NCBI RefSeq assembly: GCF_018598225.1
Contig: NZ_JAHESF010000054.1
Location: forward strand, 1 to 37,410
From: Chryseosolibacter histidinae
GTDB taxonomy: Bacteria > Bacteroidota > Bacteroidia > Cytophagales > Cyclobacteriaceae
Direction: 5' to 3'
DNA length: 37,410 nucleotides
Shown here: in pieces, positions 42 through 36,322 of the stretch
How positions within the stretch are numbered: position 1 is the first letter of the stretch
Layout: each line of letters starts with the position of its first letter
Notes under the pieces: model-generated
Told to the model about the DNA's origin: nothing
The model's input: only the letters and a program-made list of their open reading frames with translations
The model's database searches: none
Translations under genes and position numbers: made by a program

Positions 42-59
42 ACTTCCATCGCCGGAAGT
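42..59. terminator. Small hairpin downstream of the Tat aminotransferase gene
   Basis: ACTTCC and GGAAGT form a perfect 6-bp stem around a 6-base loop, just beyond the heptad array that follows the aminotransferase stop codon. There is no clear T run. It may be part of the gene-end structure; function is inferred. Confidence 0.35.
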
Positions 60-85
60 GGACCGTCGACTGTGGACCGTGGACC
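58..85. repeat. Heptad array, GTGGACC family (4 units)
   Basis: Four consecutive 7-bp units of the form GTSGACY; the second unit is the self-complementary variant GTCGACT. The array lies 5 bases past the stop codon of the minus-strand aminotransferase gene, which reads it as GGTCCAC. An inverted partner array is not visible, but the window edge is close. The same family recurs at 7372-7399 and 20531-20558, and a C-to-T variant at 1340-1420. Confidence 0.8.
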
Positions 86-90
86 ACTCA

Positions 91-1269
91 TCAACTCAAG
101 ATCGAATTCATTGATTTGACAAAAAGTTTCAGCTCGTCCATGGTGCCCATGCTTACGCGGCCGTAAGGTTTGCCGGCGATCTCGTACCCGCGGATGCCGA
201 CACCTTTCTCGAGCATTTTGCCCAGCAGGTCCTTCACCGGCATCTGTATGGGGAAGAGAATAAAATTGGTCTGCGACGGAATGGGGTTCATGCCCGCCTT
301 TTTCAGTTCCGCAAAAACATAGTCGCGGCCCTCTTTGTTATGCTGCCGCGTATACTCCTGGAACTCGGTATCTTTCAGGCTGGCCATGGCGCCTTCCAGC
401 GAAGTAACGGAGATGCCCATTTCAGTGCGCACCAGTTTCTGGATCGCTTTGACACGGTCTGGCTTCGCCACCATATAGCCGATGCGCAGCCCTGCCATGC
501 CGTGGATCTTGGAGAACGTACGACAGACGATCACGTCGTATCCTTCGCTGATCAGGCTTGTGGCCGACTGGTTACCGGGGTTCTCCATCAGCTCGAGGTA
601 CGCCTCATCAATGAATACGGGTACCTTCGAGCTCACCTTTTTACAGAAGGTTTTGATCGACTCGATCGGAGTAGGAGTGCCAGTGGGGTTATTGGGGTTA
701 CAGATATAGATGAGTTTGGTATCGGCGTCGATGGCTTTCTCCATGGCGTCGAGGTCATGCGCATAGTCTGACCGTAACGGGATGTTCTTCCAGGTTGCGC
801 CGATAGCCTGCGCCGTCTTCACCAGCGACAGGTATGACGGATCCGCTGAGATCACGTTACCACCTTTCATGCATAACGCAAAGGCAGTCTTCTCCAGGAT
901 GTCTGTCGATCCGGCTGAGAGCAGTATGTGCTCTGCCGTAACACCTTCTTTCTCCACCAGCGCGTCGACCATTTTTTTGGAGCTGCTGTACACGTAGCGG
1001 TTGCCCTTGGCCGCACTTTCCGCTATGGCCGCGACTGCTTTTTTAGAGGGACCCCACGGATTTTCGTTGGCCAGCAGCCTGGCTTTCATATTCTCGCGAT
1101 CCTGCATCATCACATGGTAGTTCTCAAAAAGCAGGTTATTGTATACGGGTGTCATGCCAAAGGCGGGTTTGGCAAAAAGGTCCGGAACCATGGCGATGCC
1201 TGTCATTACACCGCCTGCGGCCAACGCGCTTTGCTTGAGCCATGATCTTCTGTTGGTAATTGTGTTCAT
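91..1269 (-). CDS. Tat-exported histidinol-phosphate aminotransferase-like PLP enzyme
   Basis: This 392-residue fold-type I, class I/II aminotransferase resembles HisC. Seen: a twin-arginine signal (Arg7-Arg8 in NRRSWLKQ, then a hydrophobic stretch to about residue 32), the HisC-like motif ANENPWGPS near 68-76, NPNNPTGT at 191-198, DEAY at 221-224, and the probable PLP lysine Lys254 in TFSKIHGMAGLRIGY. The residues needed for catalysis appear intact. A Tat signal implies export of the folded, cofactor-loaded enzyme to the periplasm, so histidine biosynthesis is unlikely and a role on an imported amino compound is more plausible. It is the last gene of a minus-strand block after susC, susD and a lipoprotein, but a 164-bp gap with a hairpin and heptad array separates it, so co-transcription is uncertain. 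Substrate unknown. Confidence 0.85.
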   Translation of the reverse strand: MNTITNRRSWLKQSALAAGGVMTGIAMVPDLFAKPAFGMTPVYNNLLFENYHVMMQDRENMKARLLANENPWGPSKKAVAAIAESAAKGNRYVYSSSKKMVDALVEKEGVTAEHILLSAGSTDILEKTAFALCMKGGNVISADPSYLSLVKTAQAIGATWKNIPLRSDYAHDLDAMEKAIDADTKLIYICNPNNPTGTPTPIESIKTFCKKVSSKVPVFIDEAYLELMENPGNQSATSLISEGYDVIVCRTFSKIHGMAGLRIGYMVAKPDRVKAIQKLVRTEMGISVTSLEGAMASLKDTEFQEYTRQHNKEGRDYVFAELKKAGMNPIPSQTNFILFPIQMPVKDLLGKMLEKGVGIRGYEIAGKPYGRVSMGTMDELKLFVKSMNSILS

Positions 1270-1280
1270 AGGTGGATGGT

Positions 1281-1329
1281 AGATTTTAAATTTTAGATAT
1301 CAGATTTGAGTATTGAGATTTGAGATATG
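1281..1329. repeat. Heptad array, AGATTTG family (7 units), in the aminotransferase leader
   Basis: Seven in-phase 7-bp units of the form AGATTTG (variants include AAATTTT, AGATATC, AGTATTG). It ends 11 bases upstream of the ATG of the minus-strand aminotransferase gene, so it occupies the 5' leader. No inverted partner is seen. This is one of few arrays in the window at a gene start and not a gene end. Confidence 0.7.
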
Positions 1330-1339
1330 AGACGGAAGA

Positions 1340-1425
1340 GTCGATGGTCCATAGTCCATGGACGGCGGGACGTAATTATCACACTGCCCGGCCATGGACC
1401 ATCGACTATGGACTATGGACTTTTT
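1340..1425. terminator. Heptad inverted repeat (GTCCATA family) with T run
   Basis: Left arm 1340-1363 has three GTCCATR-type units and right arm 1393-1420 has four TATGGAC-type units. The segment 1340-1352 is perfectly complementary to 1394-1406 (13 bp); other registers are possible. The plus strand has TTTTT at 1421-1425. It lies downstream of the minus-strand lipoprotein gene (stop at 1434). It is the GTGGACC family with C-to-T changes, including the same GTCGA variant in the third gene-proximal unit. Confidence 0.6.
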
Positions 1426-1433
1426 GTAAGTTT

Positions 1434-1988
1434 TCATGACGCTGCTTTGGAGAAGACCACCTGCGAGTACCGGGCAAAGGACTGGCCCTTATACTCACCT
1501 GTCCACGTCACGCCTATGGTAATGCTTCTTGCCGGCGGCGATGTGGCGATCGCTTGAACATCGGTAACGCCGAGGGCTTCCCACGTTGTGGAGAGGGTCA
1601 CTTTTCCATCGCTGCCGGAAGTCAGCTCAACGGTACCGGTACCGTCACGTTTCGAAAAAATGATCTTCAATCCCGCCACTGGAATTGAGTCGATGCCTAC
1701 GGTATGATCGAGGATGCCACTTTTATCCAGCTCATATACTGTGAGCGACAACACCACGGGATTGGTATAGTTAGCTGCCGTGACAGTCTTGGTAACGGAA
1801 GGCACAGCGGTTAAACCTCCGCTCGCCAGGTAGCCCGTCACCTCGTCAAAGTCAAGAAGCACCGGTGCCTCCACACGGTCTACGAAGGGATCTTCTTCGT
1901 TGCAGGCAGAAAGCGTTACCACAGCTGCGAAGAAGAAACCGAGGAACACTGTTCCAGGTATATTCATTTTTATTTTTAATGATCTCAT
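1434..1988 (-). CDS. Small lipoprotein of the SusCD locus
   Basis: A 184-residue protein with a lipoprotein signal (hydrophobic segment then LSAC, Cys29), followed by an acidic EEDPF stretch typical of surface-exposed Bacteroidota lipoproteins. The rest is rich in beta-forming and small polar residues and may be an Ig-like domain, but no family is recognised with confidence. It starts 13 bp after the SusD stop codon on the same strand, so it is very probably co-transcribed with susC and susD and may be an accessory surface glycan- or peptide-binding lipoprotein. An in-frame ATG at codon 8 (MNIPGTVF) is an alternative start. Function is inferred from position only. Confidence 0.75.
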   Translation of the reverse strand: MRSLKIKMNIPGTVFLGFFFAAVVTLSACNEEDPFVDRVEAPVLLDFDEVTGYLASGGLTAVPSVTKTVTAANYTNPVVLSLTVYELDKSGILDHTVGIDSIPVAGLKIIFSKRDGTGTVELTSGSDGKVTLSTTWEALGVTDVQAIATSPPARSITIGVTWTGEYKGQSFARYSQVVFSKAAS

Positions 1989-7144: not shown

Positions 7145-7370
7145 TCCTGTGGGCACCTCATTGGGAGTTGGGGCATGCGGGTTGGCTGTGCGGAGCGAGG
7201 AATTTCTTTGTAGCTACCCGTCTTCGAAGGGAAGTATACAACCCTTCGAGGGTTATGCAAGTGCAGCAAACTTATGGAGTGGTGCCTCTTGAAAAGCCCT
7301 GGAAGGGTTGTTCGAGCGGAAGGTGTTATTCGATCGGGAAGCCTTGTTCGAAAGTTCGAAGGGGAAATGC
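7145..7370. other. Non-coding stretch with TTCGA-rich palindromes
   Basis: No supported gene. AACCC-TTCGA-GGGTT (7240-7254) is a perfect dyad and several further TTCGAA/TTCGAG words follow. It may belong to the same composite repeat as the preceding cruciform element. Confidence 0.35.
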
Positions 7371-7371
7371 T

Positions 7372-7399
7372 GTGGACTGTCGACAGTGGACCGTGGACT
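7372..7399. repeat. Heptad array, GTGGACC family (4 units)
   Basis: Four 7-bp units GTGGACT/GTGGACC, with second unit GTCGACA that creates the 10-bp palindrome CTGTCGACAG (7377-7386). It begins 2 bases beyond the stop codon of the minus-strand DUF4407 gene. Read from that gene, the GTCGA variant is the third unit, as at 58-85 and 1393-1420. Confidence 0.75.
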
Positions 7400-8451: not shown

Positions 8452-8699
8452 TTGAAGTTAAACGGCAAGGGATGGCGGTTATTGCTGGACGTGACATGCA
8501 ATATCATGCCAGAACAAATGGCGCTGTTCCCACGGCATGGTATTATTCTGTCAGGCAAAAGCTGTGCAGTATTGAACACCGGCATGTTCACTTTTTGGTA
8601 AACCGGCTATGAACTTTATAAAGGCTGAAAGATGTTTGAATGCGTCTGACGAACAGTAACATGTCCACTGTCCTTAATACACCTGCGCGCGCTATTCCG

Positions 8700-9860: not shown

Positions 9861-9862
9861 AA

Positions 9863-9942
9863 GGAGTAAGTAGTAAGAATTAAGGAGTAAGGAGGGCTGC
9901 CGCGCGTAAGCCCACTTACTACTTACTCCTTACTACTTACTT
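9863..9942. terminator. Heptad inverted repeat (GGAGTAA family) between convergent genes
   Basis: Left arm 9863-9890 has four units (GGAGTAA with variants GTAGTAA second and GAATTAA third); right arm 9916-9942 has inverted units (TTACTAC, TTACTCC). Segments 9863-9877 and 9915-9929 are perfectly complementary (15 bp). The arms begin 2 bases after the subtilase stop and end at the base before the stop codon of the convergent gene at 9943. Probably a bidirectional transcript-end hairpin. Confidence 0.7.
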
Positions 9943-11619
9943 CTATTTTTTAAGCGCTTTGATCGATTTTCGGAGCGCGCTCACCATGCTCCGGCCGATC
10001 TCTACGTCGTTGATGGCAAACTGGATCGTGCTGGCGTAAGGCTGGATCTTTCCGTCTTTGTAGTATTTGATGATCTTGCCTTTGAATTCAGTTTCGGCGG
10101 TTACATATAACCATTTGCCTTTGATCTCTACCTCAACGCTCAGGGGATTGAGGTCCGAAAGGTTGAACTCATACACTTCTTCGGCGCCCGAACCTTTGCT
10201 GTTGATCTCTTTGCGGGTATACTTCAGCTTGTTGTTGTTTCCGGCTTCCACCGGCTCCAGGGCCTGGTTTACGGTGATCTCGTCAAGGCTCACGTTCTTT
10301 ACATTGGCCCTGATCCAGGGGTTGGCATCGGCGCCGAAAGGTTCCTTGAACGACGCAGTGCATTTCTCCACGGCTTTATCGATGGCAAACTTGAGCCTCC
10401 GGGCACGTTCCACGTCGGGCACATACAATTTCACTTCGTTGTCGTAGCCGTTGAATTTTTCGTCGCGGGTATGCATGACGAGCTTTTTATTATCGTTCAC
10501 GGCAAGGTCAACGTACATCCTGTCGCCGGCCACATCGATCTTCGAGGCAACGGCATTGATATCCACCCAGCTGAATTTGAACACATTCTTCTCGGTGGTC
10601 TTCGGGTCTTTCTCTACCTGCGTGAAGGTGCAGACGCACTGCGGATCGAGCTCCTGGGCGATTTGTTTGTTGCCAACGCTCACCTCTGCGGTCAGTGTTT
10701 TGATCCGCTGCAGCGCATCCTTGTCAGAAGAAACGGTGCCCATATCCGCTTTTACTTTTTCAACGGCCAGGGGCGCTGCCAGGGCAAGCACCGTTTTCAG
10801 GTCACGTGCCTCGTCTACGCTGTTGGTATTGATGGTGATCTCGTTCACGTACGGCTTTACTTCACCATTTTTGCGAAGGCTGATGTACCGCGCTTTCTGC
10901 AACGTCTCGAAGCTGATGGCGAACTTGTTGCCGGTGATCTTGTAGGCAATGGAATTTACATTCACATCGGCCAGGTTGAAAGTATAGACCTCCTCGGTCG
11001 ACGATTTCTGATCAGCCTCTACCTGTGTAAAACGCATGCTGCCCACCTTATCAGCCTTGGCCAGCGATTGCTTGAACGACCGCGTGCCAAGATCAACGTT
11101 CTTCACGTTGGTGCTGAGCCAGCCGACCATCGCATCGTAACCGGATATTTTTAAACGGCCGGCCATTACTTTTTCTGCGGGCGCGATCGCTTTTTTTACA
11201 ATGTCGCTGATGGCCCGGGCATTTTCGATGTCTTTGGCGACGATGGCAGCCTGCTCATCGTATGCCTGTACTACTTCATTCTTGTAGAACTTCACAAGTT
11301 TCTGCTTGTTGCGCACGGCCATCACCACCTGGATAATGTCTTTCTGCGTCTGCTCACGCACGGCATAGGGGTCGATGTCTGACAGGTTGAACTCATAGGC
11401 ATAGTTGGTACGATTGCCCTTCTGGTCTACCTCATCATAGCTGTAGCGGACCACCGCAGGTTGTATAAAGGTGATCTTCGGTGTGTAGCTCTTAGACGAG
11501 GCTTCTACCGGCACTACGGTTTCCTGAAGTTTGGCTACCATCGCCGCCAGGTCCTGTGCTGACGATCCGGCGGACGCCAGGAGTAAAATGCTGAACGTTA
11601 AGCAGTAAATTTTCTTCAT
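9943..11619 (-). CDS. Secreted protein with four tandem ~130-residue repeats
   Basis: A 558-residue protein with a Sec signal peptide (MKKIYCLTFSILLLASAGSSAQ). The mature part is four copies of one domain, roughly 24-155, 165-290, 303-420 and 435-556. Each has a YxR/FTQVE-type strand, a VYxFNLxDxNP-type motif (YEFNLSDIDP, YTFNLADVNV, FKFSWVDINA, YEFNLSDLNP), a strand with aromatic-KNG/KDG-xxxPY (RKNGEVKPY, YKDGKIQPY) and a terminal helix with DxExAR. Repeats two and four also begin with a similar NVKNVxL segment. I do not recognise the family. The repeats resemble a small alpha/beta binding domain; location is periplasm or outside. Probably transcribed alone. Confidence 0.75.
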   Translation of the reverse strand: MKKIYCLTFSILLLASAGSSAQDLAAMVAKLQETVVPVEASSKSYTPKITFIQPAVVRYSYDEVDQKGNRTNYAYEFNLSDIDPYAVREQTQKDIIQVVMAVRNKQKLVKFYKNEVVQAYDEQAAIVAKDIENARAISDIVKKAIAPAEKVMAGRLKISGYDAMVGWLSTNVKNVDLGTRSFKQSLAKADKVGSMRFTQVEADQKSSTEEVYTFNLADVNVNSIAYKITGNKFAISFETLQKARYISLRKNGEVKPYVNEITINTNSVDEARDLKTVLALAAPLAVEKVKADMGTVSSDKDALQRIKTLTAEVSVGNKQIAQELDPQCVCTFTQVEKDPKTTEKNVFKFSWVDINAVASKIDVAGDRMYVDLAVNDNKKLVMHTRDEKFNGYDNEVKLYVPDVERARRLKFAIDKAVEKCTASFKEPFGADANPWIRANVKNVSLDEITVNQALEPVEAGNNNKLKYTRKEINSKGSGAEEVYEFNLSDLNPLSVEVEIKGKWLYVTAETEFKGKIIKYYKDGKIQPYASTIQFAINDVEIGRSMVSALRKSIKALKK

Positions 11620-11684
11620 GGTGATTGTGAAAGGTATGGTTAGTTGCGTTGTTGCGAAGATAACAAGGAGTCGGGTATGAGGGA

Positions 11685-11866
11685 GGAGTAAGGAGTAAGA
11701 ATTAAGATGGGCGGTCAGTTCGATGACACGCCGTGCTGCGTCAAAGAAGACCTGTTATTCGTAGAATGGGTGATTAAAACTTAGCCAGGGAATGAAATGG
11801 ATACTTCGATCAAGGCTGTGCAGTATGAATACGACTCCTTACTACTTACTCCTTAATTCTTACTCC
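11685..11866. terminator. Heptad inverted repeat (GGAGTAA family), widely spaced
   Basis: Left arm 11685-11705 has three units ending in GAATTAA; right arm 11839-11866 has four inverted units (TTACTAC, TTACTCC, TTAATTC, TTACTCC). Segments 11692-11706 and 11852-11866 match perfectly over 15 bp, with about 130 bp between the arms. The right arm starts 3 bases beyond the stop codon of the small gene at 11870. TTTT follows on the plus strand. Confidence 0.65.
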
Positions 11867-11869
11867 TTT

Positions 11870-12055: not shown

Positions 12056-12191
12056 GGTCCAAAGATAATCCGGACACCAGGGGCGTACTTGTTGTAAGCG
12101 CACGATTCCTTACATACATGATATAATCCGGCAAGGCATCGGGGTCTCCTGCCGGTGCTCAATCCTGAGCCAGAAATTGGCAATTCTCACC

Positions 12192-18753: not shown

Positions 18754-19443
18754 ATGAAAAGAAGATTTTTGTCCCTGTCACTACCCGTTTTTATCCTAAT
18801 CCTGTCCTGCAGCAAACCTCAGAACGAGGTGATCACCCGCCAGAATGTACGGGAGGTGCTGACCCGGTATGGGCAGGCAAACCCTGAGAACGAAGTACTT
18901 ATTGAAACAGACTTCGGCAACATGCGCATCAGGCTTTATGACGAAACGCCCCTGCACCGCGCCAACTTTATCAAGCTCATCAAGGAGGGCCACTATGAGG
19001 AAGCCGAATTTTACCGTGTCTTCTACCAGTTCATGATCCAGGGCGGGGACTTTGACGACCAGCTCGATTACATGATCCCGGCGGAATTCAATAAAAAATA
19101 CATCCATAAAAAAGGAGCGCTTTCCATGGCGCGGCAGGATGAGGATAACCCTGATCTTCAGTCATCTTCTACCGAATTCTTCATTGTGCATGGGGGCAAG
19201 TATGCCGATTACCAGGTGGATGAAGAAGTGAAAAACCTCGGGTTGACGCTGACACCGGAACAGCGTGAGACCTATATGACCTCCGGCGGATACATGTCGC
19301 TCGACCAGAAGTACACGGTGTTCGGAGAAGTGGTGGAAGGCCTGGACGTGATCGACAAGATCGCCAGCGTGAAGGTGTATCAGGAGGATAAACCGCTTAA
19401 GAAGATCCCGCTCCGCATTTCAGTAGTAGGCAGTAGGCAATAG
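18754..19443 (+). CDS. Cyclophilin-type peptidyl-prolyl isomerase lipoprotein
   Basis: From the ATG at 18754 the product has 229 residues: lipoprotein signal (MKRRFLSLSLPVFILILSC, Cys19), a linker, then a cyclophilin domain from about residue 46. Motifs: VLIETDFGNMRIRLYDETPLHRANF, FYRVFYQFMIQGGDF, ALSMARQDEDNPDLQSSSTEFFIVHGG and KYTVFGEVVEGLDVIDKIASV. It catalyses cis-trans isomerisation of prolyl bonds, presumably on envelope proteins in the periplasm. The linker helix HYEEAEF and the long insertion after the HGG are usual in Bacteroidota members. The last residues, GSRQ-stop, are encoded by a GTAGGCA heptad array, so the original C-terminus may have been altered. Confidence 0.9.
   Translation: MKRRFLSLSLPVFILILSCSKPQNEVITRQNVREVLTRYGQANPENEVLIETDFGNMRIRLYDETPLHRANFIKLIKEGHYEEAEFYRVFYQFMIQGGDFDDQLDYMIPAEFNKKYIHKKGALSMARQDEDNPDLQSSSTEFFIVHGGKYADYQVDEEVKNLGLTLTPEQRETYMTSGGYMSLDQKYTVFGEVVEGLDVIDKIASVKVYQEDKPLKKIPLRISVVGSRQ
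19426..19443. repeat. GTAGGCA heptads overlapping the cyclophilin 3' end
   Basis: Two exact GTAGGCA units (19426-19439) followed by the degenerate ATAGACT. The array supplies the final codons and the TAG stop of the cyclophilin gene. No inverted partner is visible; a different palindromic element begins at 19461. Confidence 0.6.
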
Positions 19444-20415: not shown

Positions 20416-20423
20416 AGAAAAGA

Positions 20424-20451
20424 AGTCAGGAGTCAGAAGCCAGGAGTCAGA
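20424..20451. repeat. Heptad array, AGTCAGG family (4 units)
   Basis: Four 7-bp units (AGTCAGG, AGTCAGA, with AGCCAGG third) starting 8 bases after the DUF4114 stop codon. No inverted partner is found in the gap; a different heptad family follows directly. Confidence 0.65.
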
Positions 20452-20455
20452 AGAA

Positions 20456-20487
20456 GGAGTAAGAATTAAGGAGTAAGGAGTAAGGAG
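20456..20487. repeat. Heptad array, GGAGTAA family (4 units)
   Basis: GGAGTAA units with GAATTAA in second place, plus a partial GGAG. The order GGAGTAA then GAATTAA then GGAGTAA is the same as in the arrays near 9863 and 11839. No inverted partner nearby. Confidence 0.7.
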
Positions 20488-20530
20488 CCGCGTCGATCTT
20501 GACTGGATGGTGATGCAACACTGCACGGCT

Positions 20531-20558
20531 GTGGACCGTGGACTGTCGACTGTGGACT
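20531..20558. repeat. Heptad array, GTGGACC family (4 units)
   Basis: GTGGACC/GTGGACT units with GTCGACT third. Relative to the upstream plus-strand gene this array is in the orientation that is distal at other loci. No partner array of the same family lies in this gap. Confidence 0.7.
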
Positions 20559-20584
20559 CTTAAGAATACTATATAGTGAAGCGC

Positions 20585-20648: not shown

Positions 20649-20666
20649 CGTATTTTGTCTCCCCAT

Positions 20667-20694
20667 CGTACCTCGTACTTCGTACCTCGTACCT
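20667..20694. repeat. Heptad array, CGTACCT (GTACGAG) family (4 units)
   Basis: Four CGTACCT/CGTACTT units, the inverted form of the array at 15653-15680. The partner arm is absent from this gap. It ends about 118 bases before the next start codon. Confidence 0.7.
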
Positions 20695-20811
20695 CAAATC
20701 ACCCAATATGCGTGAGCAATTCCAGCCCCGGCAAACACATTAGCGCCTTTCGAAGCCCAGTTGTTGTATTTTGCACGAAGGCGCCTTATATTATTTGAAA
20801 ACCAAAGCAAC

Positions 20812-21906: not shown

Positions 21907-22056
21907 GTAGGCAGTAGGCAAGAGCAGTAGGCAACGCACCATGCAAACTAAAGCAGAACCTCCTGGCGATAGTCCAGGGGGTTCTGTGATCAGAAACATA
22001 TCTTTGAAACGACCACCGCCCTTTGTCTACTGCCTGTTTGTCTACTGCCTACTGCC
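21907..22056. terminator. GTAGGCA heptad inverted repeat enclosing a strong hairpin
   Basis: Three GTAGGCA units at 21907-21933 face three inverted TACTGCC units at 22028-22056; 21910-21920 pairs perfectly with 22046-22056. Between them CAGAACCTCCTGG (21954-21966) pairs with CCAGGGGGTTCTG (21974-21986), 13 bp with one G-T pair and a 7-base loop. It lies between convergent genes; probably a bidirectional terminator. The right arm overlaps the last codons of the minus-strand gene. Confidence 0.75.
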
Positions 22057-22365: not shown

Positions 22366-22490
22366 AGTTAAAAAGGTTTTAGTTGGACATTTATTTTTTG
22401 AACGTTCCCCGGTAACCGCAAATGCAACCAGCAGTTCCTCTCTGGGTCCGTCATGGCAGGATGGTAAATAATTGTACCGATGGAGAAATA

Positions 22491-22639
22491 GTTGACAGTT
22501 GACAAAGGGCAATTGACAATGGATGAGTAATAGATCACATCCCTGCTATCGAACCAACGTCAAGGGGCTTCTCAAACCGACAGCAGAATCTCGAAACTAA
22601 AATCGAACGTTGTCAACTGTTTATTTGTCAATTGTCAAC
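22491..22639. terminator. Heptad inverted repeat (GTTGACA family)
   Basis: Left arm 22491-22518 has two GTTGACA units, a degenerate AAGGGCA, then ATTGACA; right arm 22611-22639 has inverted TGTCAAC/TGTCAAT units. Arms match over 14 bp with one mismatch (22491-22504 with 22626-22639). The right arm overlaps the stop codon of the minus-strand gene ending at 22639. Left-arm order, including the AGGG interruption, is almost identical to 36196-36224. Confidence 0.7.
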
Positions 22640-23019
22640 TACCTTCTCGATCCCGCAGCACGATTTGTAGAGGTATGGAGGGTATCAGGAACGTTCCTGT
22701 TCTTGTAGTAGGTCTCGAATTTTTTTCTGTTCTTCCGGATGTTCTCTTTCACCGCCCTGGGCATCTGGGCTTTGGTTCCGGGTTTGGGGCAATCCCACTC
22801 TTCAATGGAGGCTGCGTCTTTCACGGGGCGTGTTTGTCGCGGAAAGGTAAACTTCTCCTTCTCCTCTTCTTCTGCCGAAGCATAGGCATTCATTTTCATC
22901 CGGTAGTTTTCAGGGCGTCTGTTAAGCTTGACACCTTTCACACGGGGACAGGCAATCTCGCCCGACCTGCAGGCCGCAAGAAGAAAAATAAACGCCAGAA
23001 GAAGTGATCTGATAAGCAT
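22639..23019 (-). CDS. Small basic/acidic lipoprotein (126 aa)
   Basis: A 126-residue lipoprotein: signal MLIRSLLLAFIFLLAAC (Cys17) and a low-complexity, highly charged mature part with an acidic run (ASAEEEEKEKF) and many Lys/Arg (KENIRKNRKKFETYYKNRN), including CPKPGTKAQMPR. Two further cysteines are present. No family recognised. It is upstream of, and same strand as, the 107-aa membrane protein gene, but a 273-bp gap with a heptad hairpin separates them. Confidence 0.65.
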   Translation of the reverse strand: MLIRSLLLAFIFLLAACRSGEIACPRVKGVKLNRRPENYRMKMNAYASAEEEEKEKFTFPRQTRPVKDAASIEEWDCPKPGTKAQMPRAVKENIRKNRKKFETYYKNRNVPDTLHTSTNRAAGSRR

Positions 23020-23433: not shown

Positions 23434-24690
23434 ATGGCTAAAAAACGCGGCGATAGAAAACGGCGTGGATGGGTGATCCTGGTGGTGGTCATTGCTGTTT
23501 TGATCGGGGCAAGACTGGCGCTTCCTTATGTGATACTGCATTATGCCAACAAGACCCTGGCAACAATGGAGGGTTATCGCGGGCATATCCGCGACATCGA
23601 TATTGCGCTCATTCGCGGTGCCTATCAGATAGACAGCGCCTACCTCAACAAGGTAGACAGCATCACCCAACAGGAAACACCTTTTGTGGCCGTCTCGAAA
23701 GTGGATCTTTCCGTGGAGTGGGCCGCATTGCTACAGGGCTCTATCGTGGGCGAAGTGACCTTCAGGAAACCGGTGATCCGTTTTACACGCAACAAGGTGG
23801 AACCGAAAGATGTGCAGAAAGACTCGTCACAGCTGAAGCACATGCTGGACGGTTTCATGCCCCTGAAAGTTAACCGCTTCAACGTGCACGAAGGCCAGAT
23901 CCAGTACATCGATCACACCAGTAACCCGCCCGTGGATGTATCGCTGACCGACGCGGAGATCACGGGCATTAACCTCATCAACAGCTACGACTCCGCCAAC
24001 ACCATACTGCCCGCTTCCATCAGGGCCACCGCCAACATCTACGACGGAACATTGTCCTTTAATATGAAGCTCGATCCGCTGGCGGAAGACCCCACGTTCG
24101 ACATGAACGCGGAGCTCAAGAACACCAACCTGGTGAAGCTGAACGATTTCTTCAAAGCTTATGCGAAAGCGGATGTGAGCAAAGGTTCCTTCGGGTTGTT
24201 CACCGAGATCGCCGCAAAGGATGGAAGGTTCAACGGTTATGTAAAACCACTGATCAAAGACCTCAAGATGCTGGGCGCTGAAGACCGGAAAGACAACATA
24301 CTGAAAAAACTATGGGAAGGGCTGATAGGTACTGCCGGAGAGGTGTTCGAAAATCAACGCAACGACCAGCTCGCCACCAAGATCCCTTTCGAAGGCCGCA
24401 TCAACAATCCGCAAGCCAACATCTGGTATGCGATCGTGCAGGTGATGCAGAATGCCTTTGTGCACGCGCTTCAACCCTCCTTCGACCAGGACATCAACAT
24501 CGCCGCAGTAGAAACGGATAAGGAAAAAGCCGGGAAGGAAGACAACAAGAAAACGATGCTCGGCAGGCTGTTCAGCAAAGACGACGATGCCACCAAAGAG
24601 GCAAAGAAACAAAAACGCAAGGAGCGTAAAGCGAAGAAGAAAGAAGAGCGGAGGAAAAAACGCGAGCGGAGGGATGATGAGAAGAGTTAG
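23434..24690 (+). CDS. DUF748-like envelope protein
   Basis: A 418-residue protein with a short basic N-terminus, one transmembrane segment (about 13-32, WVILVVVIAVLIGARLALPYVI), then a long beta-rich AsmA/DUF748-like body: the pattern YRGHIRDIDIALIRGAYQIDSAYL, SVEWAALLQGSIVGEVTFRKPVIRF, INRFNVHEGQIQYID-like VNRFNVHEGQIQYID, and LTDAEITGINLIN is typical. The C-terminal 60 residues are extremely lysine/arginine- and glutamate-rich (KKQKRKERKAKKKEERR). Proteins of this type are linked with lipid transport between membranes; here the role is inferred. The stop codon lies inside the first unit of an AAGTTTC heptad array. Confidence 0.85.
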   Translation: MAKKRGDRKRRGWVILVVVIAVLIGARLALPYVILHYANKTLATMEGYRGHIRDIDIALIRGAYQIDSAYLNKVDSITQQETPFVAVSKVDLSVEWAALLQGSIVGEVTFRKPVIRFTRNKVEPKDVQKDSSQLKHMLDGFMPLKVNRFNVHEGQIQYIDHTSNPPVDVSLTDAEITGINLINSYDSANTILPASIRATANIYDGTLSFNMKLDPLAEDPTFDMNAELKNTNLVKLNDFFKAYAKADVSKGSFGLFTEIAAKDGRFNGYVKPLIKDLKMLGAEDRKDNILKKLWEGLIGTAGEVFENQRNDQLATKIPFEGRINNPQANIWYAIVQVMQNAFVHALQPSFDQDINIAAVETDKEKAGKEDNKKTMLGRLFSKDDDATKEAKKQKRKERKAKKKEERRKKRERRDDEKS

Positions 24691-24804
24691 AAGTTTCAAG
24701 TTACAAGTTTCAAGTTTCAAGTTAGGTGGGGTTCTAACTTTAAACTTTAAACCTGAAACTTTAAACCTGAAACTTTAAACCTGAGACCCTGAGACCTGAA
24801 ACTT
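24684..24804. repeat. Heptad inverted repeat (AAGTTTC family), largest array
   Basis: Left arm 24684-24725: GAGTTAG (holding the stop codon of the preceding gene) then five AAGTTTC/AAGTTAC/AAGTTAG units. Right arm 24734-24804: about ten inverted units alternating TAAACCT and GAAACTT, giving a 14-bp higher-order period, with one 8-base unit at 24783-24790. The right arm is twice as long as the left. It lies between two plus-strand genes. Confidence 0.75.
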
Positions 24805-24844
24805 TAACTTACTGGAAACATTACTTTCATTTTTTCGGGGTATT

Positions 24845-30593: not shown

Positions 30594-30757
30594 CAGGTGT
30601 AGGACAATTTACCAAAATCCGTATCAAATACCCCGCATTAACATTTCATTAACCTATTTAACCAACGCGTTAACAACTTTAACCCAGCCTTATCCCATCT
30701 GATAGGAAAAGAAGTTTTTCTTTGATCGAAAAAATGTTCAACCCAAAATTCACAGTT

Positions 30758-31186
30758 ATGAAAAATGTCATAATATCAACGATGCTGCTGGTGGTAATGG
30801 TTGTTTCCGCTGCGGCTCAGAGCTGCTCCGTTCCACCGCCTGTCGACAAGAAGGCCACGCTTGGCAGATGGCAGGGCAACTACACCCAGAACGGAGAGAT
30901 CAAAACCTTGCAGGTAGATTTCCAGGAGGCCGACGAGCAGGTAGTGCCCTACGTGGATATGAAGGGCCACGGTATGAAGAACACACGTTTCGAGCTGAAG
31001 ATCTGCGGCCAGAAAGAGCTGCACCTGAAAAAGGTGAATGTCGATAACACAACGTTCGAGTTCGTGGGCAAACCCCAGGGCGACAAGATCACCGGAAGGT
31101 TAACGATCAGGCAGGGTGACAAGCAGCTCAGTGATGAGATCTTTACATTGACAAGAGCGGGCCAGGCACTCACCGCGGTGAATTGA
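30758..31186 (+). CDS. Secreted hypothetical protein (142 aa)
   Basis: From the ATG at 30758 the product has 142 residues: signal peptide (MKNVIISTMLLVVMVVSAAAQ) and a beta-rich mature domain starting SCSVPPPVDKKATLGRWQGNYTQNGEIKTLQVDF. GxWxGxY starts are common in lipocalin-like periplasmic proteins of this phylum, and the rest (YVDMKGHGMKNTRFELKICGQKELHLKKV, KITGRLTIRQGDKQLSDEIFTLTR) fits a beta-barrel. Ligand unknown. It is divergent from the two-component operon, so it might be one of its targets; that is a guess. Confidence 0.75.
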   Translation: MKNVIISTMLLVVMVVSAAAQSCSVPPPVDKKATLGRWQGNYTQNGEIKTLQVDFQEADEQVVPYVDMKGHGMKNTRFELKICGQKELHLKKVNVDNTTFEFVGKPQGDKITGRLTIRQGDKQLSDEIFTLTRAGQALTAVN

Positions 31187-31189: not shown

Positions 31190-31275
31190 AGAATTTAGAA
31201 TATAGAATTTAGCATTTAGAATGAGGAGCGATGGTATTTTATTCTAACTCCTAAATTCTATATTCTATATTCTAT
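31190..31275. terminator. Heptad inverted repeat (AGAATTT family)
   Basis: Left arm 31190-31224 has five AGAATTT-type units (variants AGAATAT, AGCATTT); right arm 31241-31275 has five inverted ATTCTAT/CTCCTAA units. The segments 31196-31212 and 31251-31267 are perfectly complementary over 17 bp. The right arm holds the stop codon of the convergent minus-strand gene (31272-31274). It is the longest perfect heptad stem in the window. Confidence 0.75.
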
Positions 31276-32375: not shown

Positions 32376-33475
32376 CGTTCGCCGGCCGTCCACAGATCGA
32401 GGTCGCCATTCACGCGGCGTTGCAGCACTACTACCTGGTTGTCGTCAAGCTTGTCGAGCTGCATCACGTTCACCACGGGCAACGTGACAAAGTCAACACC
32501 TGCTGTGGCATAACTTTCTTTCACCGGCTCGGTAAGCGATCCTTCATAGGTCTCAAGGCTCTTGTATTGCACGCGCATCACAGGGCGGCTCGAGTTGGCC
32601 ATGATCAGATACGAATCGCCACCTTTTTTGATGGTGACGATATCGAGCGGTGTGTTGCCGGCACCGAACTCCCCTACTGTTCTTCCTTTCACATGCTTGC
32701 CGGGCTTCAGCTCATCCATGGGAAAGAGCACGAGCGGTGTGCACGTGAAGCTTGCCACAAGATATTTTTTTCCGTTCAGCTCTGCCGTTGTAAATGTTTT
32801 GATGGGCGCATAGGTTTCGTAGCGGCCGTGGGCTGCGTGATAGATCTCCAGCGAAGCCTGCTCCTGCCGGTTGGCAAAAGGAAAAGGTATACTTCTGAAC
32901 GTGGAGCTGAACTCCTGGTTGGAGAGACCGCTCACCATCAGATTGCCGTCTGCAAAATGCATGTCTGAAACAGACCATACACGGGTGGGACGTCCCCGCT
33001 GATCTTTGGCATCTTCTGCCGGCACATTGCTGATGGCGATGGTGCTGTAAGGAATATTCTTTAACGATACGGGCTGGATCTTGTCTCCTTCTATGGTGAG
33101 CAGCACCGGCGTGCCATCGCCGTTCTGCACGGCACAATAGATCTTTTTGGAGATCGGGTTCACCACCAGATCCTGGATGTTGATATTTTTAGCTTCGGTG
33201 CCCAGCAGCGCGGCGATCTTCTGATCTATATTCTTGAGCTCAACAGCCTGCGCCTGGGCAACAGCGGTTTTGTCTTTTGTATCGATGGCAAAAACAGCAG
33301 CGCTCTTTGAATCGCCGATGAACAGGATACCTTCAGGGCCAAAGGCAAGCGCGCTGATGGATTGAATCGCAGGTGTTCCATTCACAAGACCATATGGACC
33401 AGAGGAGCGTTTTGCGCTGGCCAGCAGCAGGGAAGCAAACAGGCCCACAGCCAGGAAGTAGTATGCTTGTTTCAT
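32366..33475 (-). CDS. Exported beta-propeller-like protein
   Basis: A 369-residue protein with a Sec signal (MKQAYYFLAVGLFASLLLASA). The body has repeated four-stranded-like blades: ISALAFGPEGILFIGDSKSAAVFAID, LVVNPISKKIYCAVQNGDGTPVLLTIEGDKIQPV, DMHFADGNLMVSGLSN, KYLVASFTCTPLVLFPMDELKPG and DIVTIKKGGDSYLIMANSSRPVMRVQY. This fits a six- or seven-bladed propeller, possibly NHL/YVTN-like. No catalytic motif seen. It is the first gene of a two-gene operon with the Ig-like lipoprotein. Periplasmic or surface location is inferred. Confidence 0.75.
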   Translation of the reverse strand: MKQAYYFLAVGLFASLLLASAKRSSGPYGLVNGTPAIQSISALAFGPEGILFIGDSKSAAVFAIDTKDKTAVAQAQAVELKNIDQKIAALLGTEAKNINIQDLVVNPISKKIYCAVQNGDGTPVLLTIEGDKIQPVSLKNIPYSTIAISNVPAEDAKDQRGRPTRVWSVSDMHFADGNLMVSGLSNQEFSSTFRSIPFPFANRQEQASLEIYHAAHGRYETYAPIKTFTTAELNGKKYLVASFTCTPLVLFPMDELKPGKHVKGRTVGEFGAGNTPLDIVTIKKGGDSYLIMANSSRPVMRVQYKSLETYEGSLTEPVKESYATAGVDFVTLPVVNVMQLDKLDDNQVVVLQRRVNGDLDLWTAGERWY

Positions 33476-33797
33476 GTGCCAAAGGGTTAGGGTAAGGGTA
33501 TATATTAGTCCGGAGAATCAAATTAAGAAATCCAGGCCTCGTTTCATAGCCCGGAGTCAGGGTTTGACAGGGAATTGGAGATCAATGCCGGATTCCGGTT
33601 GACGAAAGGATGCCAGAGACAGGTGAATGGAAGGGTTGCCAGTTACCGGTTGCCAGTTGCCGGATAGCCAGTTGCCAGCGTAAACGCCTTAGGTGTTGGG
33701 ATTGGCATTAGGCATTGCAACAACACCGCATTGGCGGATAGAACGTTATGGATTTCAGGAAAAACTTTGTAAATTTTACGTATTCAATCCGGGGACT
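33476..33797. other. Divergent intergenic region with heptad arrays
   Basis: No gene seen. It carries the GTTGCCA array (separate entry) and should contain promoters for both flanking genes; TTTG followed by TAAATTTTA near 33773-33782 is a loose promoter-like match for the plus-strand gene. Confidence 0.35.
33635..33717. repeat. Heptad array, GTTGCCA family, in a divergent region
   Basis: GTTGCCA/GTTACCG/GTTGCCG units in phase at 33635-33662, one 8-base unit, another GTTGCCA (33671-33677), then GGCATTA and GGCATTG (33704-33717). It lies between two gene starts, so it is not a gene-end structure. No clear inverted partner. Confidence 0.65.
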
Positions 33798-34181: not shown

Positions 34182-34217
34182 TTGCGTCAGAGGGACTCTG
34201 ATAAATCAAGACCGGAA

Positions 34218-34385
34218 GTAGGCAGTAGGCAAATGCCGATCTTCAATCGGCAGCAGTAGGCAATAGGAGAGTTCCAGGCATCACGTGAGTATTACTCTAC
34301 TCGAGTGGCAAACAGTAGTGATGGTTTGAAACCGTTCTTTTGCCTACTGCCCGATCGCCTGCGATCGGATTTGCCTACTGCCTAC
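34218..34385. terminator. GTAGGCA inverted repeat with inserted hairpins
   Basis: Left arm: two GTAGGCA units (34218-34231), a perfect hairpin TGCCGAT-CTTCA-ATCGGCA (34234-34252), another GTAGGCA (34256-34262). Right arm, inverted: TGCCTAC (34341-34347), a perfect hairpin CCGATCG-CCTG-CGATCGG (34351-34368), then two TGCCTAC units (34372-34385). The arms are diverged inverted copies with different but self-complementary inserts. The right arm abuts the stop codon of the convergent PhyH gene. Confidence 0.75.
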
Positions 34386-35254
34386 TAAACAAGTGGGTTC
34401 ATTTCACTCTCCGCCATTTCCCCCGGTTTTCTTCCACCGAGCCAGGCTTTCAGGTCGGCTTCGCGAAATGCGTTATCCGGTTGAAGGATGGTGGTCTTGT
34501 CGGCGTAGTAAATGATGGTCATCACCTCGCGCATAGTATTAGTGTTATTCGCGGGGGCGTTGTGAAGGGTCCAGCCGGCATGAAAGGTGGCGTCGCCGGC
34601 ATTCATCGTATCGCGGCCCGACACCGGCATGGCGTGGTCTTTCACATACTGATCGAAGAATGTTTCCGATGCATCGGAGATCTCTTTCGAGAGAATATAA
34701 CCTTGCTGGTGAGAGCCTGATGCAAACTGCATGATGCCCATGTTCTTTGACAGGTCTACCAACGGCATCCACAGGGTGATGGTGTGCGTGGTATCCAGTG
34801 GCCAGTAGAACTGATCCTGGTGCCAGGGTGTATGTCCTCCGCCGGCTTCCTTGAACAGGGCCTGGTCGTGGTAAACCCTTACCCGCTCAACGCCCATGAG
34901 CTGTGCTGCCACGGCGCCGAAACGTTTCGACAGCACAAATCGCTTCAGGGTCTCGCTGGTACACCAGAGGTTGAAGATCTGAAGAAAGGCCTTGCCATAG
35001 GTATCGCGGTCTTTCATCGCCCGTTTTTCCGTATTCATTTTTTCCACGGCTTCGCGGATCGCTTTCCTGTAAAAGGAGACCTCCTGCGGCGAGGCCAGCT
35101 GTGGCAGGCAAATGTGCCCGTCTCTTCTGTAAGCTTCTATCTGGTGGCGGCTCAGCGGGTACCTCCCTTGTAATTCCTCCTGCTGCTTGGTCGTTGGTTC
35201 CTGCATATCACAAGTCATGTGGGTTGAATCAAAAATACCGGCGCGCGCTGACAT
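34385..35254 (-). CDS. Phytanoyl-CoA dioxygenase (PhyH) family protein
   Basis: A 289-residue Fe(II)/2-oxoglutarate dioxygenase of the PhyH family. Seen: the HxD iron ligands His145 and Asp147 in HTPWHQDQFYWPL, the distal His231 in GDATFHAGWTLHNAP, and Arg242 for 2-oxoglutarate binding in NTMREVMTI. Hydroxylation of an organic substrate is likely; the true substrate is not phytanoyl-CoA necessarily. In-frame ATGs at 35218 and 35206 are possible shorter starts. It is divergent from an AraC regulator 74 bp away, the common arrangement for a regulator and its target in Bacteroidota catabolic loci. Confidence 0.9.
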   Translation of the reverse strand: MSARAGIFDSTHMTCDMQEPTTKQQEELQGRYPLSRHQIEAYRRDGHICLPQLASPQEVSFYRKAIREAVEKMNTEKRAMKDRDTYGKAFLQIFNLWCTSETLKRFVLSKRFGAVAAQLMGVERVRVYHDQALFKEAGGGHTPWHQDQFYWPLDTTHTITLWMPLVDLSKNMGIMQFASGSHQQGYILSKEISDASETFFDQYVKDHAMPVSGRDTMNAGDATFHAGWTLHNAPANNTNTMREVMTIIYYADKTTILQPDNAFREADLKAWLGGRKPGEMAESEMNPLV

Positions 35255-35291
35255 CAGTCTTCCTCGCGATCATGAAAGCATTGCACTCTAT

Positions 35292-35324
35292 TGAATAAAT
35301 TATTATATTCAGGAATCATTTCCT
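35292..35324. promoter_or_regulatory. Palindromes between PhyH and AraC genes
   Basis: TGAATA (35292-35297) with TATTCA (35306-35311) around 8 AT-rich bases, and overlapping AGGAA-TCAT-TTCCT (35311-35324), fill the 74-bp divergent gap. They are candidate AraC operator and promoter elements. Inferred. Confidence 0.4.
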
Positions 35325-35328
35325 CAAT

Positions 35329-36201
35329 ATGAAGCCAGTTTTTGAAAAAATTTACAACAGAGATGATGCTTCGTTCAAGGTGATGCGTCTGGAGACCAGG
35401 ACCTTCGATCATCCGTACCATTATCATCCGGAGTACGAGCTGACCCTGATCACAGCAGGGTCGGGACATCGGTTTGTAGGCGACCATACGGATACATTCT
35501 TCTCCAACGACCTTATCCTGTTGGGGAAAAATCTGCCGCACTGCTGGCTGGATTTCGGCCAGAGCAAACACATGGTATCTGCGGTGGTGATCCAGTTCAG
35601 GGAAGATTGTTTCGGCAAAAGCTTTTTTGATCTGCCGGAAATGCACCGGATCAGCCTGCTGCTGCGGCGCGCATCCAGGGGCATTCAATTCCTGAAAACC
35701 GGCGGCAACCTGCTGGATTCGTTGAACCAGATCCATCAGCAAACAGGCTCCGACCAGCTGATCACGTTCCTCAGCATCATGAACGACCTGTCGCGTTCGG
35801 ATGACTTTGCGCTGCTGTCCACTTCGGATTACAACACCACCCATCACGACACAAAATTCAGCAGGATCGACAAGGTGTTTGAATATGTAGCCGGTCATTT
35901 CCGCACGGGCATCGACCTTTCAGTAACCGCAGACCTGGTGCACATGACCCCTTCCGCTTTCTGCCATTATTTCAAGAAGTACACCAAGAAGACCTTTACA
36001 CAATACGTGAACGAAGTGAAGATCGGGTATTCATGCAAGCTCCTGATGGAAACGGAGCTGAACGTTTCGGAGGTCTGCTATCAGAGCGGATACAATAGTC
36101 TTTCCCGGTTTAACAAGTGCTTCAAAAAGATCACAAAAAAGACACCGTTGAGCTACCGCAAACATTTCAATCTTCCGGAAACGCGAGTCTTAACTAGTTG
36201 A
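35329..36201 (+). CDS. AraC-family transcriptional regulator
   Basis: A 290-residue regulator. N-terminal cupin ligand domain (about 15-110): FDHPYHYHPEYELTLITAGSGHRFVGDHTDTFFSNDLILLGKNLPHCW, typical of sugar-responsive members. C-terminal AraC DNA-binding domain (about 190-285) with two HTH motifs: VTADLVHMTPSAFCHYFKKYTKKTFTQYVNEVKIGYSCKLL and NVSEVCYQSGYNSLSRFNKCFKKITKKTPLSYRKHF. It probably controls the divergent PhyH gene and itself. The gene's last codons and TGA stop run into a GTTGACA heptad array. Confidence 0.94.
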   Translation: MKPVFEKIYNRDDASFKVMRLETRTFDHPYHYHPEYELTLITAGSGHRFVGDHTDTFFSNDLILLGKNLPHCWLDFGQSKHMVSAVVIQFREDCFGKSFFDLPEMHRISLLLRRASRGIQFLKTGGNLLDSLNQIHQQTGSDQLITFLSIMNDLSRSDDFALLSTSDYNTTHHDTKFSRIDKVFEYVAGHFRTGIDLSVTADLVHMTPSAFCHYFKKYTKKTFTQYVNEVKIGYSCKLLMETELNVSEVCYQSGYNSLSRFNKCFKKITKKTPLSYRKHFNLPETRVLTS

Positions 36202-36322
36202 CAGTTGACAAGGGAACAATTGACAACGTTGTGTAAGCTAAAACAACCAGGCTATGTTCTCAAATGTCTAAAGGCGCCCAATAGCCGGTACCATTGTCAA
36301 CTGCCCTATTGCCAACTGTCAA
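36196..36322. repeat. Heptad inverted repeat (AGTTGAC family)
   Basis: Left arm 36196-36224: two AGTTGAC units, an 8-base AAGGGAAC interruption, then AATTGAC. Right arm 36294-36322: inverted TTGTCAA, an 8-base CTGCCCTA, TTGCCAA, CTGTCAA. Read on the opposite strand the right arm also has an AGGG interruption in the same place. The stop codon of the AraC gene (36199-36201) lies in the first unit. It sits between two plus-strand genes. Confidence 0.7.

What the first reader, a model, noticed from the sequence alone, without database searches (positions are those of the whole stretch)
58..36322. Window-wide set of 7-bp-unit inverted arrays at gene 3' ends
Intergenic DNA next to about 18 gene ends carries degenerate tandem arrays with a strict 7-bp unit, most often four units, in at least nine unrelated word families. 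At most loci the array recurs inverted, giving long potential hairpins with perfect segments of 11-17 bp (for example 9863-9942, 11685-11866, 31190-31275). Loci: 58-85, 1340-1425, 7372-7399, 9863-9942, 11685-11866, 15653-15741, 19426-19443, 20424-20694, 21907-22056, 22491-22639, 24684-24804, 31190-31275, 34218-34385, 36196-36322. Each locus uses one family, mostly. That one period is shared by unrelated words points to a generating process that counts seven. Transcript termination or 3' mRNA protection is the simplest role; heptamer tandem repeats are otherwise best known from filamentous cyanobacteria.
Basis: partly seen in the sequence, partly recalled or inferred. Interest (0 to 1): 0.88.

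Follow-up and report, generated by a model that had tools for sequence, protein, structure and literature searches.

The report
Gene-end hairpins built from seven-base words
This bacterium ends many of its genes with imperfect hairpins made of short tandem words of seven bases, in a dozen vocabularies that a close relative hardly shares, which looks like a fast-changing way to mark the ends of messages and deserves an RNA test.

Summary
Confirmed and extended. Period-7 arrays are genome-wide: in 1.23 Mb of this 8.04-Mb genome, 284 noncoding arrays at lag 7 against 4-13 at seven control lags. They sit at gene 3' ends, densest between convergent genes, and are absent from 55 of 55 tight tandem gene pairs. 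Twelve words fit 249 of 329 arrays at 90% or better; scrambled words 3%. Arms pair by family: 85 of 96 same-family neighbours are inverted with one polarity; RGT outnumbers ACY in the 5' arm in 83 of 85 pairs. New: arms of one locus pair less perfectly than re-paired arms; three families hold about one odd unit per array; AT-rich arms are longer with shorter loops; same-genus G002 has arrays in other words (4 of 83 fit, all AGTAGGC) and also period 8, so the process does not strictly count seven. Best reading: imperfect 3'-end hairpins, without U-tract, marking transcription-unit ends. Closest known kind: Xanthomonas GGGAATC arrays, but none of 329 arrays here has four G- or C-tracts. Function is inferred, not shown.

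The parts
58..85 (-). GTCCAC-family array, 4 units, 5'-arm form read on the minus strand, 5 bp behind the stop of gene 91-1269 (-); partner side cut by the window edge
1271..1332 (+). GAGATTT-family array (not in the finding), upstream of gene 91-1269; no partner within 250 bp
1336..1424 (.). GTCCAT-family inverted pair, arms 1336-1361 / 1399-1424 (85% complementary), behind gene 1434-1988 (-)
7370..7398 (-). GTCCAC-family array, minus-strand 5'-arm form, behind gene 7402-8451 (-, DUF4407); no partner within 250 bp
9861..9944 (.). GAGTAA-family hairpin filling the space between convergent genes 8640-9860 (+, subtilase) and 9943-11619 (-); dG -37.3, z -6.1
11684..11868 (.). GAGTAA-family inverted pair, directly behind short ORF 11870-12103 (-); perfect 17-bp segment
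15651..15741 (.). GTACGA-family hairpin behind histidine-kinase gene 15748-17616 (-); no array in the syntenic G002 spacer; z -5.6
19425..19443 (+). AGTAGGC-family array overlapping the stop codon of the cyclophilin gene; the G002 ortholog is followed by a period-8 inverted array
20421..20487 (+). GAGTAA-family array (5'-arm form, loose fit 0.69) behind gene 19615-20415
20531..20558 (+). GTCCAC-family array (3'-arm form)
20666..20695 (+). GTACGA-family array (3'-arm form), upstream of gene 20812-21900
21907..22056 (.). AGTAGGC-family inverted pair between genes 20812-21900 (+) and 22042-22362 (-), overlapping the end of the latter
22489..22641 (.). AGTTGAC-family inverted pair behind gene 22639-23019 (-); no array in the syntenic G002 spacer; z -5.5 for 22490-22639
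24685..24807 (.). GTTTAA-family inverted pair behind gene 23434-24690 (+); weaker fold, z -2.2 for 24684-24804
31190..31275 (.). AGAATTT-family hairpin between convergent genes 30722-31186 and 31272-32393; z -7.6
33635..33678 (+). GTTGCC-family array (not in the finding); no partner within 250 bp
34217..34386 (.). AGTAGGC-family inverted pair behind genes ending at 34181 (+) and 34385 (-); 18-bp perfect arms, an exception to the usual shorter runs
36196..36324 (.). AGTTGAC-family inverted pair, 31-nt arms 81% complementary; the stop of 35329-36201 (+) lies inside the array

Best explanation
The arrays are the two arms of imperfect hairpins that mark the 3' ends of transcription units, in both directions between convergent genes. 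Shown: position, inverted pairing with fixed polarity, predicted folding, exclusion from tight gene pairs. Inferred: the hairpin acts in RNA, blocking 3' exonucleases and/or helping polymerase release together with Rho, since no U-tract follows. Tandem words serve because any unit of one arm can pair with any unit of the other, so the stem forms in several registers and survives drift and unit loss. Variant units keep perfect duplex mostly below about 18 bp, plausibly to escape RNase III in RNA or cruciform/SbcCD loss in DNA (both enzymes recalled, not tested). Words are gained and replaced quickly, so species have largely different vocabularies while the architecture stays.
For: Gene-end position: convergent 3.06, tandem 2.15, divergent 0.79 arrays per kb; 184 of 267 nearest a stop. 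Array in 10 of 40 conserved tandem pairs with a wide sister gap (39 bp or more) and 0 of 55 tight ones, Fisher P 8e-5 (the 39-bp cut was chosen). Same-family neighbours inverted with 5' arm first in 85 of 96; single arrays have a weak inverted partner on the expected side in 41 of 146, on the wrong side in 0, a direct copy on the expected side in 13. 84 of 85 pairs folded, median dG -47 against -29 shuffled, median z -5.7. Pairs with AT-rich arms have longer arms (rho -0.64, n 85) and shorter loops (GC against loop rho 0.53). Best 21-base pairing within loci 17.78 against 18.39 re-paired, P 0.0005, n 76; perfect runs of 18 bp or more in 3 of 81 pairs, 9.5 expected, P 0.005. Convergent spacers with arrays hold fewer stem-plus-T terminators, 6 of 50 (shuffled 3), than those without, 19 of 74 (shuffled 9) (difference not tested).
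Against: No U-tract. In tandem spacers G.U and A.C mismatches are equal in the direction of transcription (43 and 47), so no trace of selection on RNA pairing rather than DNA. 105 of 146 single arrays lack even a weak partner. The length-GC relation is between families (9 families, P 0.05) and vanishes within families. The excess shortness of perfect runs depends on the cut: P 0.25, 0.05, 0.005, 0.09 at 14, 16, 18, 20 bp; the GAGTAA family goes the other way, and the window pair 34217-34386, too short for that set, has an 18-bp perfect run. 23 divergent spacers also hold arrays. Position is not conserved between species: arrays at both orthologous 3' ends in 4 of 139, P 0.23.
Confidence: 0.45

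Rival explanations
1. Selfish dispersed elements (REP/MITE-like): inverted array pairs are copied into new sites by a transposase or other enzyme and survive at gene ends because insertion does least harm there.
For: 356 GTSGAC pattern matches here and none in two same-genus genomes; spacers without arrays at syntenic sites in G002, some shorter than here (192 against 121, 147 against 39, 82 against 15 bp); REPs show the same convergent/tandem gene-end distribution (PMC3733652, passages); four Y1 transposase hits, three of them in longer, RAYT-like frames (my judgement by length).
Against: Loops are mostly unrelated: 5 similar loop pairs involving 7 of 57 loops. Some array spacers are shorter than the sister's spacer (77 against 255, 61 against 173, 84 against 230 bp), so they are not simple additions. 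1 of 4 Y1 transposase loci has an array pair in the 3.2-3.3 kb fetched. Unit order differs between most arms listed, though some arms share it (GTCCAC and GTCCAT only).
Confidence: 0.25
2. Mutational by-product: polymerase slippage makes 7-8 bp tandem runs in unselected gene-end DNA (a proposal that PMC4679880 and PMC4692102 cite to Mrazek 2007), and inverted pairs arise by template switching in existing hairpins.
For: In the GTTTAA family, and at one or two positions of GAGTAA and GTAATC, units within an array are alike beyond chance (7 of 21 position tests overdispersed; next-but-one identity in GTTTAA and GAGTAA), as slippage predicts. Period 8 in G002.
Against: GTCCAC, GTCCAT, GTTGCC arrays are underdispersed at position 5, with neighbours no more alike than shuffled. 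Words repeat genome-wide with the same positions conserved (G at position 2 in 0.99-1.0 of units in four families). Arms at one locus are less, not more, complementary than re-paired ones. Array sizes peak at 4-5 units.
Confidence: 0.18
3. Protein-binding arrays: a nucleoid or RNA-binding protein reads the RGT word once per 7 bp, and the arrays are its docking sites; pairing is secondary.
For: Invariant or nearly invariant G and T once per unit in several families; polarity kept even in single arrays: convergent spacers 21 of 23 in the 5'-arm form towards the nearer gene, tandem spacers 34 of 51 near stops and 5 of 30 near starts.
Against: A reader of several further conserved bases would need a different specificity for each of a dozen families and for each species; no candidate protein was sought or found here. 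Divergent single arrays show no polarity (10 and 11).
Confidence: 0.1

Closest known systems
GGGAATC heptamer arrays of Xanthomonas (Rehm et al. 2015, PMC4692102; sections 10 and 16 read, other passages by search)
   Same: Period 7, four units commonest, dispersed, intergenic, nearer the 3' end of the upstream ORF (mean 28 nt), G-rich strand on the coding side behind a gene, often two arrays in convergent orientation, few between divergent genes, length and sequence varying between species.
   Different: One G-tract word, discussed as G-quadruplex; here twelve families and 0 of 329 arrays with four G- or C-tracts. There most repeats lie between the same genes in two species; here position is hardly shared.
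TAACTGA repeats of Beggiatoaceae, cyanobacteria and five Bacteroidetes (PMC4679880; abstract and sections 3, 9, 12, 24 read)
   Same: Intergenic heptamer tandem arrays; the paper also notes other heptamer repeats beside TAACTGA in G. forsetii, A. sublithincola and E. anophelis. Reverse-complemented TAACTGA rotates to AGTTATC, the RGTNNNN form; the reversed form stands behind a stop in one F. litoralis case and the forward form mostly before starts, the same polarity as here (my inference).
   Different: One word studied, mostly just before start codons, described as direct repeats without predicted RNA structure of their own.
STRR heptamers of filamentous cyanobacteria (recalled; Nostoc GGGGA(T/C)T passages in PMC4692102)
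   Same: Degenerate 7-bp tandem arrays, several words (three in Calothrix as cited there), intergenic.
   Different: Few inverted pairs reported for the Nostoc word.
REP/BIME palindromes (PMC3733652, passages)
   Same: Extragenic, close to 3' ends, convergent and unidirectional spacers, paired units, many families.
   Different: REP stems are 5-13 bp and tagged GTAG or CGTC; here arms are mostly 3-5 tandem 7-mers and Y1 transposase loci mostly lack them.

Membership tests
Xanthomonas-type GGGAATC heptamer arrays | Tandem 7-bp units, four units most common | tested here: met
   137 of 329 arrays have about four units, the commonest class
Xanthomonas-type GGGAATC heptamer arrays | Placed near the 3' end of the upstream ORF, often as convergent pair | tested here: met
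Xanthomonas-type GGGAATC heptamer arrays | Four G-tracts able to form a G-quadruplex | tested here: not met
   0 of 329 arrays with four tracts of three or more G or C
TAACTGA repeats | TAACTGA word just upstream of start codons | tested here: not met
   None of the twelve words is TAACTGA in any rotation or strand (words compared, no separate search); arrays cluster at stops
Intrinsic (Rho-independent) terminators | Stable hairpin at the gene 3' end | tested here: met
   82 of 84 folded pairs have z below -2
Intrinsic (Rho-independent) terminators | U-tract directly after the hairpin | tested here: not met
   T 0.320 against 0.278 background; 5.6% of 108 ends with six or more T
REP/BIME elements | Gene-end, convergent-rich placement | tested here: met
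REP/BIME elements | RAYT gene flanked by the repeats | tested here: not met
   1 of 4 Y1_Tnp loci has an array pair in the fetched stretch
REP/BIME elements | GTAG or CGTC tag at one end | not tested
   No systematic scan made; the AGTAGGC family contains GTAG
Any Rfam family | Match above gathering score | tested here: not met
   0 matches in the window

The most novel reading that the evidence does not exclude
A widespread but undescribed kind of bacterial gene-end element: a fixed grammar (units of 7, sometimes 8, bases; RGT or AG in the 5' arm; four to five units per arm; imperfect inverted partner; in some families about one odd unit per arm) filled with a vocabulary that is almost entirely rewritten between species of one genus. 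The Xanthomonas, cyanobacterial and Beggiatoaceae heptamers would be single-word cases of the same grammar, so G-quadruplex formation would not be its cause, and some reader or writer of short words acts at transcript ends.
Probability: 0.2. Interest if true: 0.85.

Novelty: new variant of a known kind. Interest (0 to 1): 0.62.

Why it matters
In the papers seen, heptamer arrays are treated one word at a time, with a separate story for each (G-quadruplex, translation sites, slippage). Here a single genome carries a dozen words under one architecture, none with the tracts for a quadruplex, and a same-genus genome has almost wholly other words and a second period. This separates architecture from word, argues against the quadruplex as a general cause, and makes 'why seven, why four, why gene ends' testable in one organism. 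If the hairpins end transcripts, this is a terminator class that U-tract based predictors would miss.

Tried and rejected
G-quadruplex: rejected, no array has four G- or C-tracts. Canonical intrinsic terminators: rejected, no U-tract. RNA-level selection seen through G.U against A.C: no signal in tandem spacers (43 against 47; convergent 40 against 26, where no direction is expected). RAYT mobilisation: weak, 1 of 4 loci. Copying of whole elements including loops: 5 similar loop pairs involving 7 of 57 loops. A strict count of seven: rejected by period-8 arrays in G002. A shared ancestral position: orthologous 3' ends both with arrays in 4 of 139, P 0.23; read by eye, the four have different words, and one further orthologous region, below threshold in G000, shows the same AGTAGGC word. 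Survey: one or two 20-kb stretches in each of 16 relatives gave 0-3 lag-7 segments a stretch; dense arrays were seen only in G022 (stretches chosen because they had GTSGAC hits) and, thinner, in G002; too small a sample for a distribution claim. The GTACSA pattern in 149 class genomes (G000 included) hit three others, with 1, 1 and 4 matches, while the reversed control hit five others 26 times in all: no evidence for that word elsewhere.

Caveats: family templates were written by eye from the same data. The fit cut of 0.75 used is lax: 51% of arrays with scrambled words pass it; at 0.9, 249 of 329 pass against 3.2% of scrambled, so some family labels are loose. Gene calls are longest ORFs of 110 aa or more, so starts are over-extended and short genes missed. 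Arrays of one family may share descent, so permutation P values are not fully independent. Of 21 family-position dispersion tests, 4 were underdispersed (P below 0.02) and 7 overdispersed (P 0.03 or below). Four run-length cuts were tried. Rows dropped before counts: 13 of 329 arrays not fitting a family; 27 of 294 arrays outside called spacers; arrays under three units; loops under 30 bp, leaving 57 of 85; 1 of 85 pairs over 260 nt; 3 of 142 orthologs with short flanks; families with fewer than four pairs, leaving 81 of 85, and also arms under 21 nt, leaving 76; all-N stretches L077 and L078.

Statements about print: no account of this multi-word gene-end hairpin system was found in the searches (listings; four papers opened: PMC4679880, PMC4692102, PMC3733652, PMC7366714, the last for passages on terminators); other heptamer repeats in three Bacteroidetes are mentioned in PMC4679880. 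The library lacks most subscription papers, and Mrazek 2007 was seen only as cited.

Full report
What was checked. The window lies in an 8.04-Mb, 122-contig genome. At score 9 or more, lag 7 gives 284 noncoding and 45 coding segments; lags 5, 6, 8, 9, 10, 11 and 13 give 4 to 13 noncoding segments. Noncoding identity by lag is 0.296 at 7, 0.281 at 14, 0.283 at 21, and 0.25-0.27 at the other lags from 2 to 30. A pattern search of the whole genome with one word (GTNGAC three times) finds 380 matches and 0 for the reversed pattern. Scaled up, there are about 2,100 arrays in the genome.

Where they are. With a simple longest-ORF gene set, arrays occur at 3.06 per kb of convergent, 2.15 of tandem and 0.79 of divergent spacers (88, 148 and 31 arrays); 42 of 105 convergent, 87 of 259 tandem and 21 of 117 divergent spacers of at least 80 bp hold one (convergent against divergent P 3e-4). 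In tandem spacers 96 arrays are nearer the upstream stop and 52 nearer the downstream start, with equal numbers expected. About 176 of 868 called genes have an array within about 100 bp of the stop. Among tandem gene pairs whose neighbours are conserved in same-genus G002, arrays lie in 10 of 40 pairs with a G002 gap of 39 bp or more and 0 of 55 tighter pairs (P 8e-5; cut chosen): they avoid likely operon-internal joints. Of 41 arrays mostly inside a called ORF, 14 lie within 30 bp of its 3' end and 11 of its over-extended start.

Anatomy. Twelve words fit 316 of 329 arrays at 75% (a lax cut, 51% of scrambled words pass) and 249 of 329 at 90% (3.2% of scrambled words). Read in the form of the left (5') arm they are RGTCCAC, RGTCCAT, RGTAATC, RGTTTMA, RGTACGA, RGTTGCC, AGTMAGR, ARTTGAC, ARTAGGC, AGYTGNG, AGAATWT and AGATWTG. 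Adjacent arrays within 350 bp are of the same family in 93 of 115 cases (13% expected) and same-family neighbours are inverted with the same polarity in 85 of 96 (5 LL, 5 RR, 1 the other way). A template-free test on pairs found by complementarity gives more RGT than ACY in 83 of 85 pairs. Of 146 arrays called single, 41 have a weak inverted partner on the expected side and 0 on the wrong side. Single arrays in convergent spacers obey the polarity in 21 of 23. Size peaks at four units in GC-rich families and five in most AT-rich ones. Across pairs, arm length falls with GC (rho -0.64) and loop length rises with GC (rho 0.53), as if weak words were offset by longer stems and shorter loops; for arm length this holds between families only.

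Unit variation is patterned. Most positions of a word are nearly invariant and one or two are split (position 1 A/G in five families). In GTCCAC arrays 34 of 41 arrays of three or four units have exactly one GTCGAC-type unit (variance 0.41 of expectation, 0 of 3000 permutations as low); in GTCCAT 15 of 23 and in GTTGCC 22 of 38 have exactly one odd unit at position 5, with variance 0.45 and 0.53 of expectation; GTAATC shows no such rule. GTTTAA is the opposite: units in an array are alike beyond chance, as slippage predicts. Two regimes may coexist, or the GC-rich families may descend from founders with one odd unit.

Arms avoid perfect pairing. Within a locus the best 21-base match between one arm and its partner averages 17.78, against 18.39 when arms are re-paired among loci of the same family (n 76, P 0.0005); the small GAGTAA set (5) goes the other way. 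Perfect runs of 18 bp or more occur in 3 of 81 pairs, 9.5 expected (P 0.005); at 14, 16 and 20 bp P is 0.25, 0.05 and 0.09. The window pair 34217-34386 has an 18-bp perfect run and was too short to enter that set. So most arms were not made by recent inversion of one another; long perfect palindromes are either lost from DNA or selected against in RNA. Hairpins still fold well: 84 pairs, median z -5.7; five window loci z -2.2 to -7.6. No U-tract follows and G.U is not preferred over A.C, so neither intrinsic termination nor RNA-specific selection is shown.

Evolution. Two same-genus genomes have no GTSGAC match; of 78 relatives searched (79 genomes with G000) five have 1 to 6, against 356 here. 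In 758 kb of G002, 83 lag-7 arrays were found; 4 of them fit the twelve words at 90% (all AGTAGGC), scrambled words 2.4%, against 249 of 329 in G000. G002 words include AGCTGCA, AGATTTT, AAATTTN and TTAGGCA, often inverted, and there are period-8 inverted families (GTGTTAAT, CGTTGATA; lag-8 count 35 against 0-10 at lags 5, 6 and 9-13; some lag-8 segments are low-complexity or overlap lag-7 arrays). G001 gave one array pair in the 81 kb held, and it uses the GTTTAA word of G000. G022, a different genus, is dense in RGTACCA, AGAGCCA and AGTGANC words, 3 of 35 arrays fitting the twelve words at 90%. Syntenic spacers 15591/15748 and 22362/22639 of the window have no array in G002; behind the cyclophilin gene (19443) G002 has a period-8 inverted array instead. 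Among 139 orthologous 3' ends, 23 have arrays here, 13 in G002, 4 in both (P 0.23), the four read by eye as different words. Spacers with arrays are sometimes longer and sometimes shorter than in G002. Words therefore turn over within a genus while the build of the structure recurs.

Comparison with what is known. Rehm et al. 2015 (PMC4692102, sections 10 and 16) describe GGGAATC arrays in Xanthomonas: mostly four units, close to the 3' end of the upstream ORF, often convergent pairs, varying in length and sequence between species though mostly between the same genes; they connect four units with G-quadruplexes. The same architecture here without any array holding four G- or C-tracts says that the quadruplex cannot be the general reason. 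MacGregor 2015 (PMC4679880, abstract and sections 3, 9, 12, 24) reports TAACTGA arrays in Beggiatoaceae, cyanobacteria and five Bacteroidetes, and mentions other heptamer repeats in three of the latter; the reversed word is AGTTATC, again RGTNNNN, and stands behind a stop in one F. litoralis case. These polarity parallels are my inference from their text. REPs share the placement (PMC3733652, passages) but not the build. Seven literature searches showed no account of the present system.

Judgement. The reading as 3'-end hairpins is the best supported (0.45), with mobile elements (0.25), slippage by-product (0.18) and protein-docking arrays (0.10) as rivals. No function has been demonstrated.

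Noticed in passing
window 19445-19625: About 180-bp dispersed imperfect palindrome behind the cyclophilin gene; 11 blastn hits (itself included) on 10 of 61 stretches, one of them in L014 between a GTCCAT array and a weak inverted copy of it.
   Followed up: partly
G000 stretches (for example L030, L052): Perfect 18-bp palindrome TCCCGATAGCTATCGGGA, 9 copies in 1.23 Mb, all 9 in called spacers.
   Followed up: no
L091 13284-13408, L144 288-830, L148 14561-14697: Same-genus genome G002 has inverted tandem arrays of period 8.
   Followed up: partly
window 36196-36201 and 19425-19443: Stop codons of the AraC-like and cyclophilin genes lie inside arrays, so the arrays appear to have set the last residues of these proteins.
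   Followed up: no
L131, L132, L133, L134: Four Y1 transposase hits in the genome, three in longer RAYT-like frames; only L132 has an array pair in its stretch.
   Followed up: partly
L021 about 18100-18160: One unusually long, nearly perfect GTACGA array (about eight identical units), unlike the usual diversified four units.
   Followed up: no
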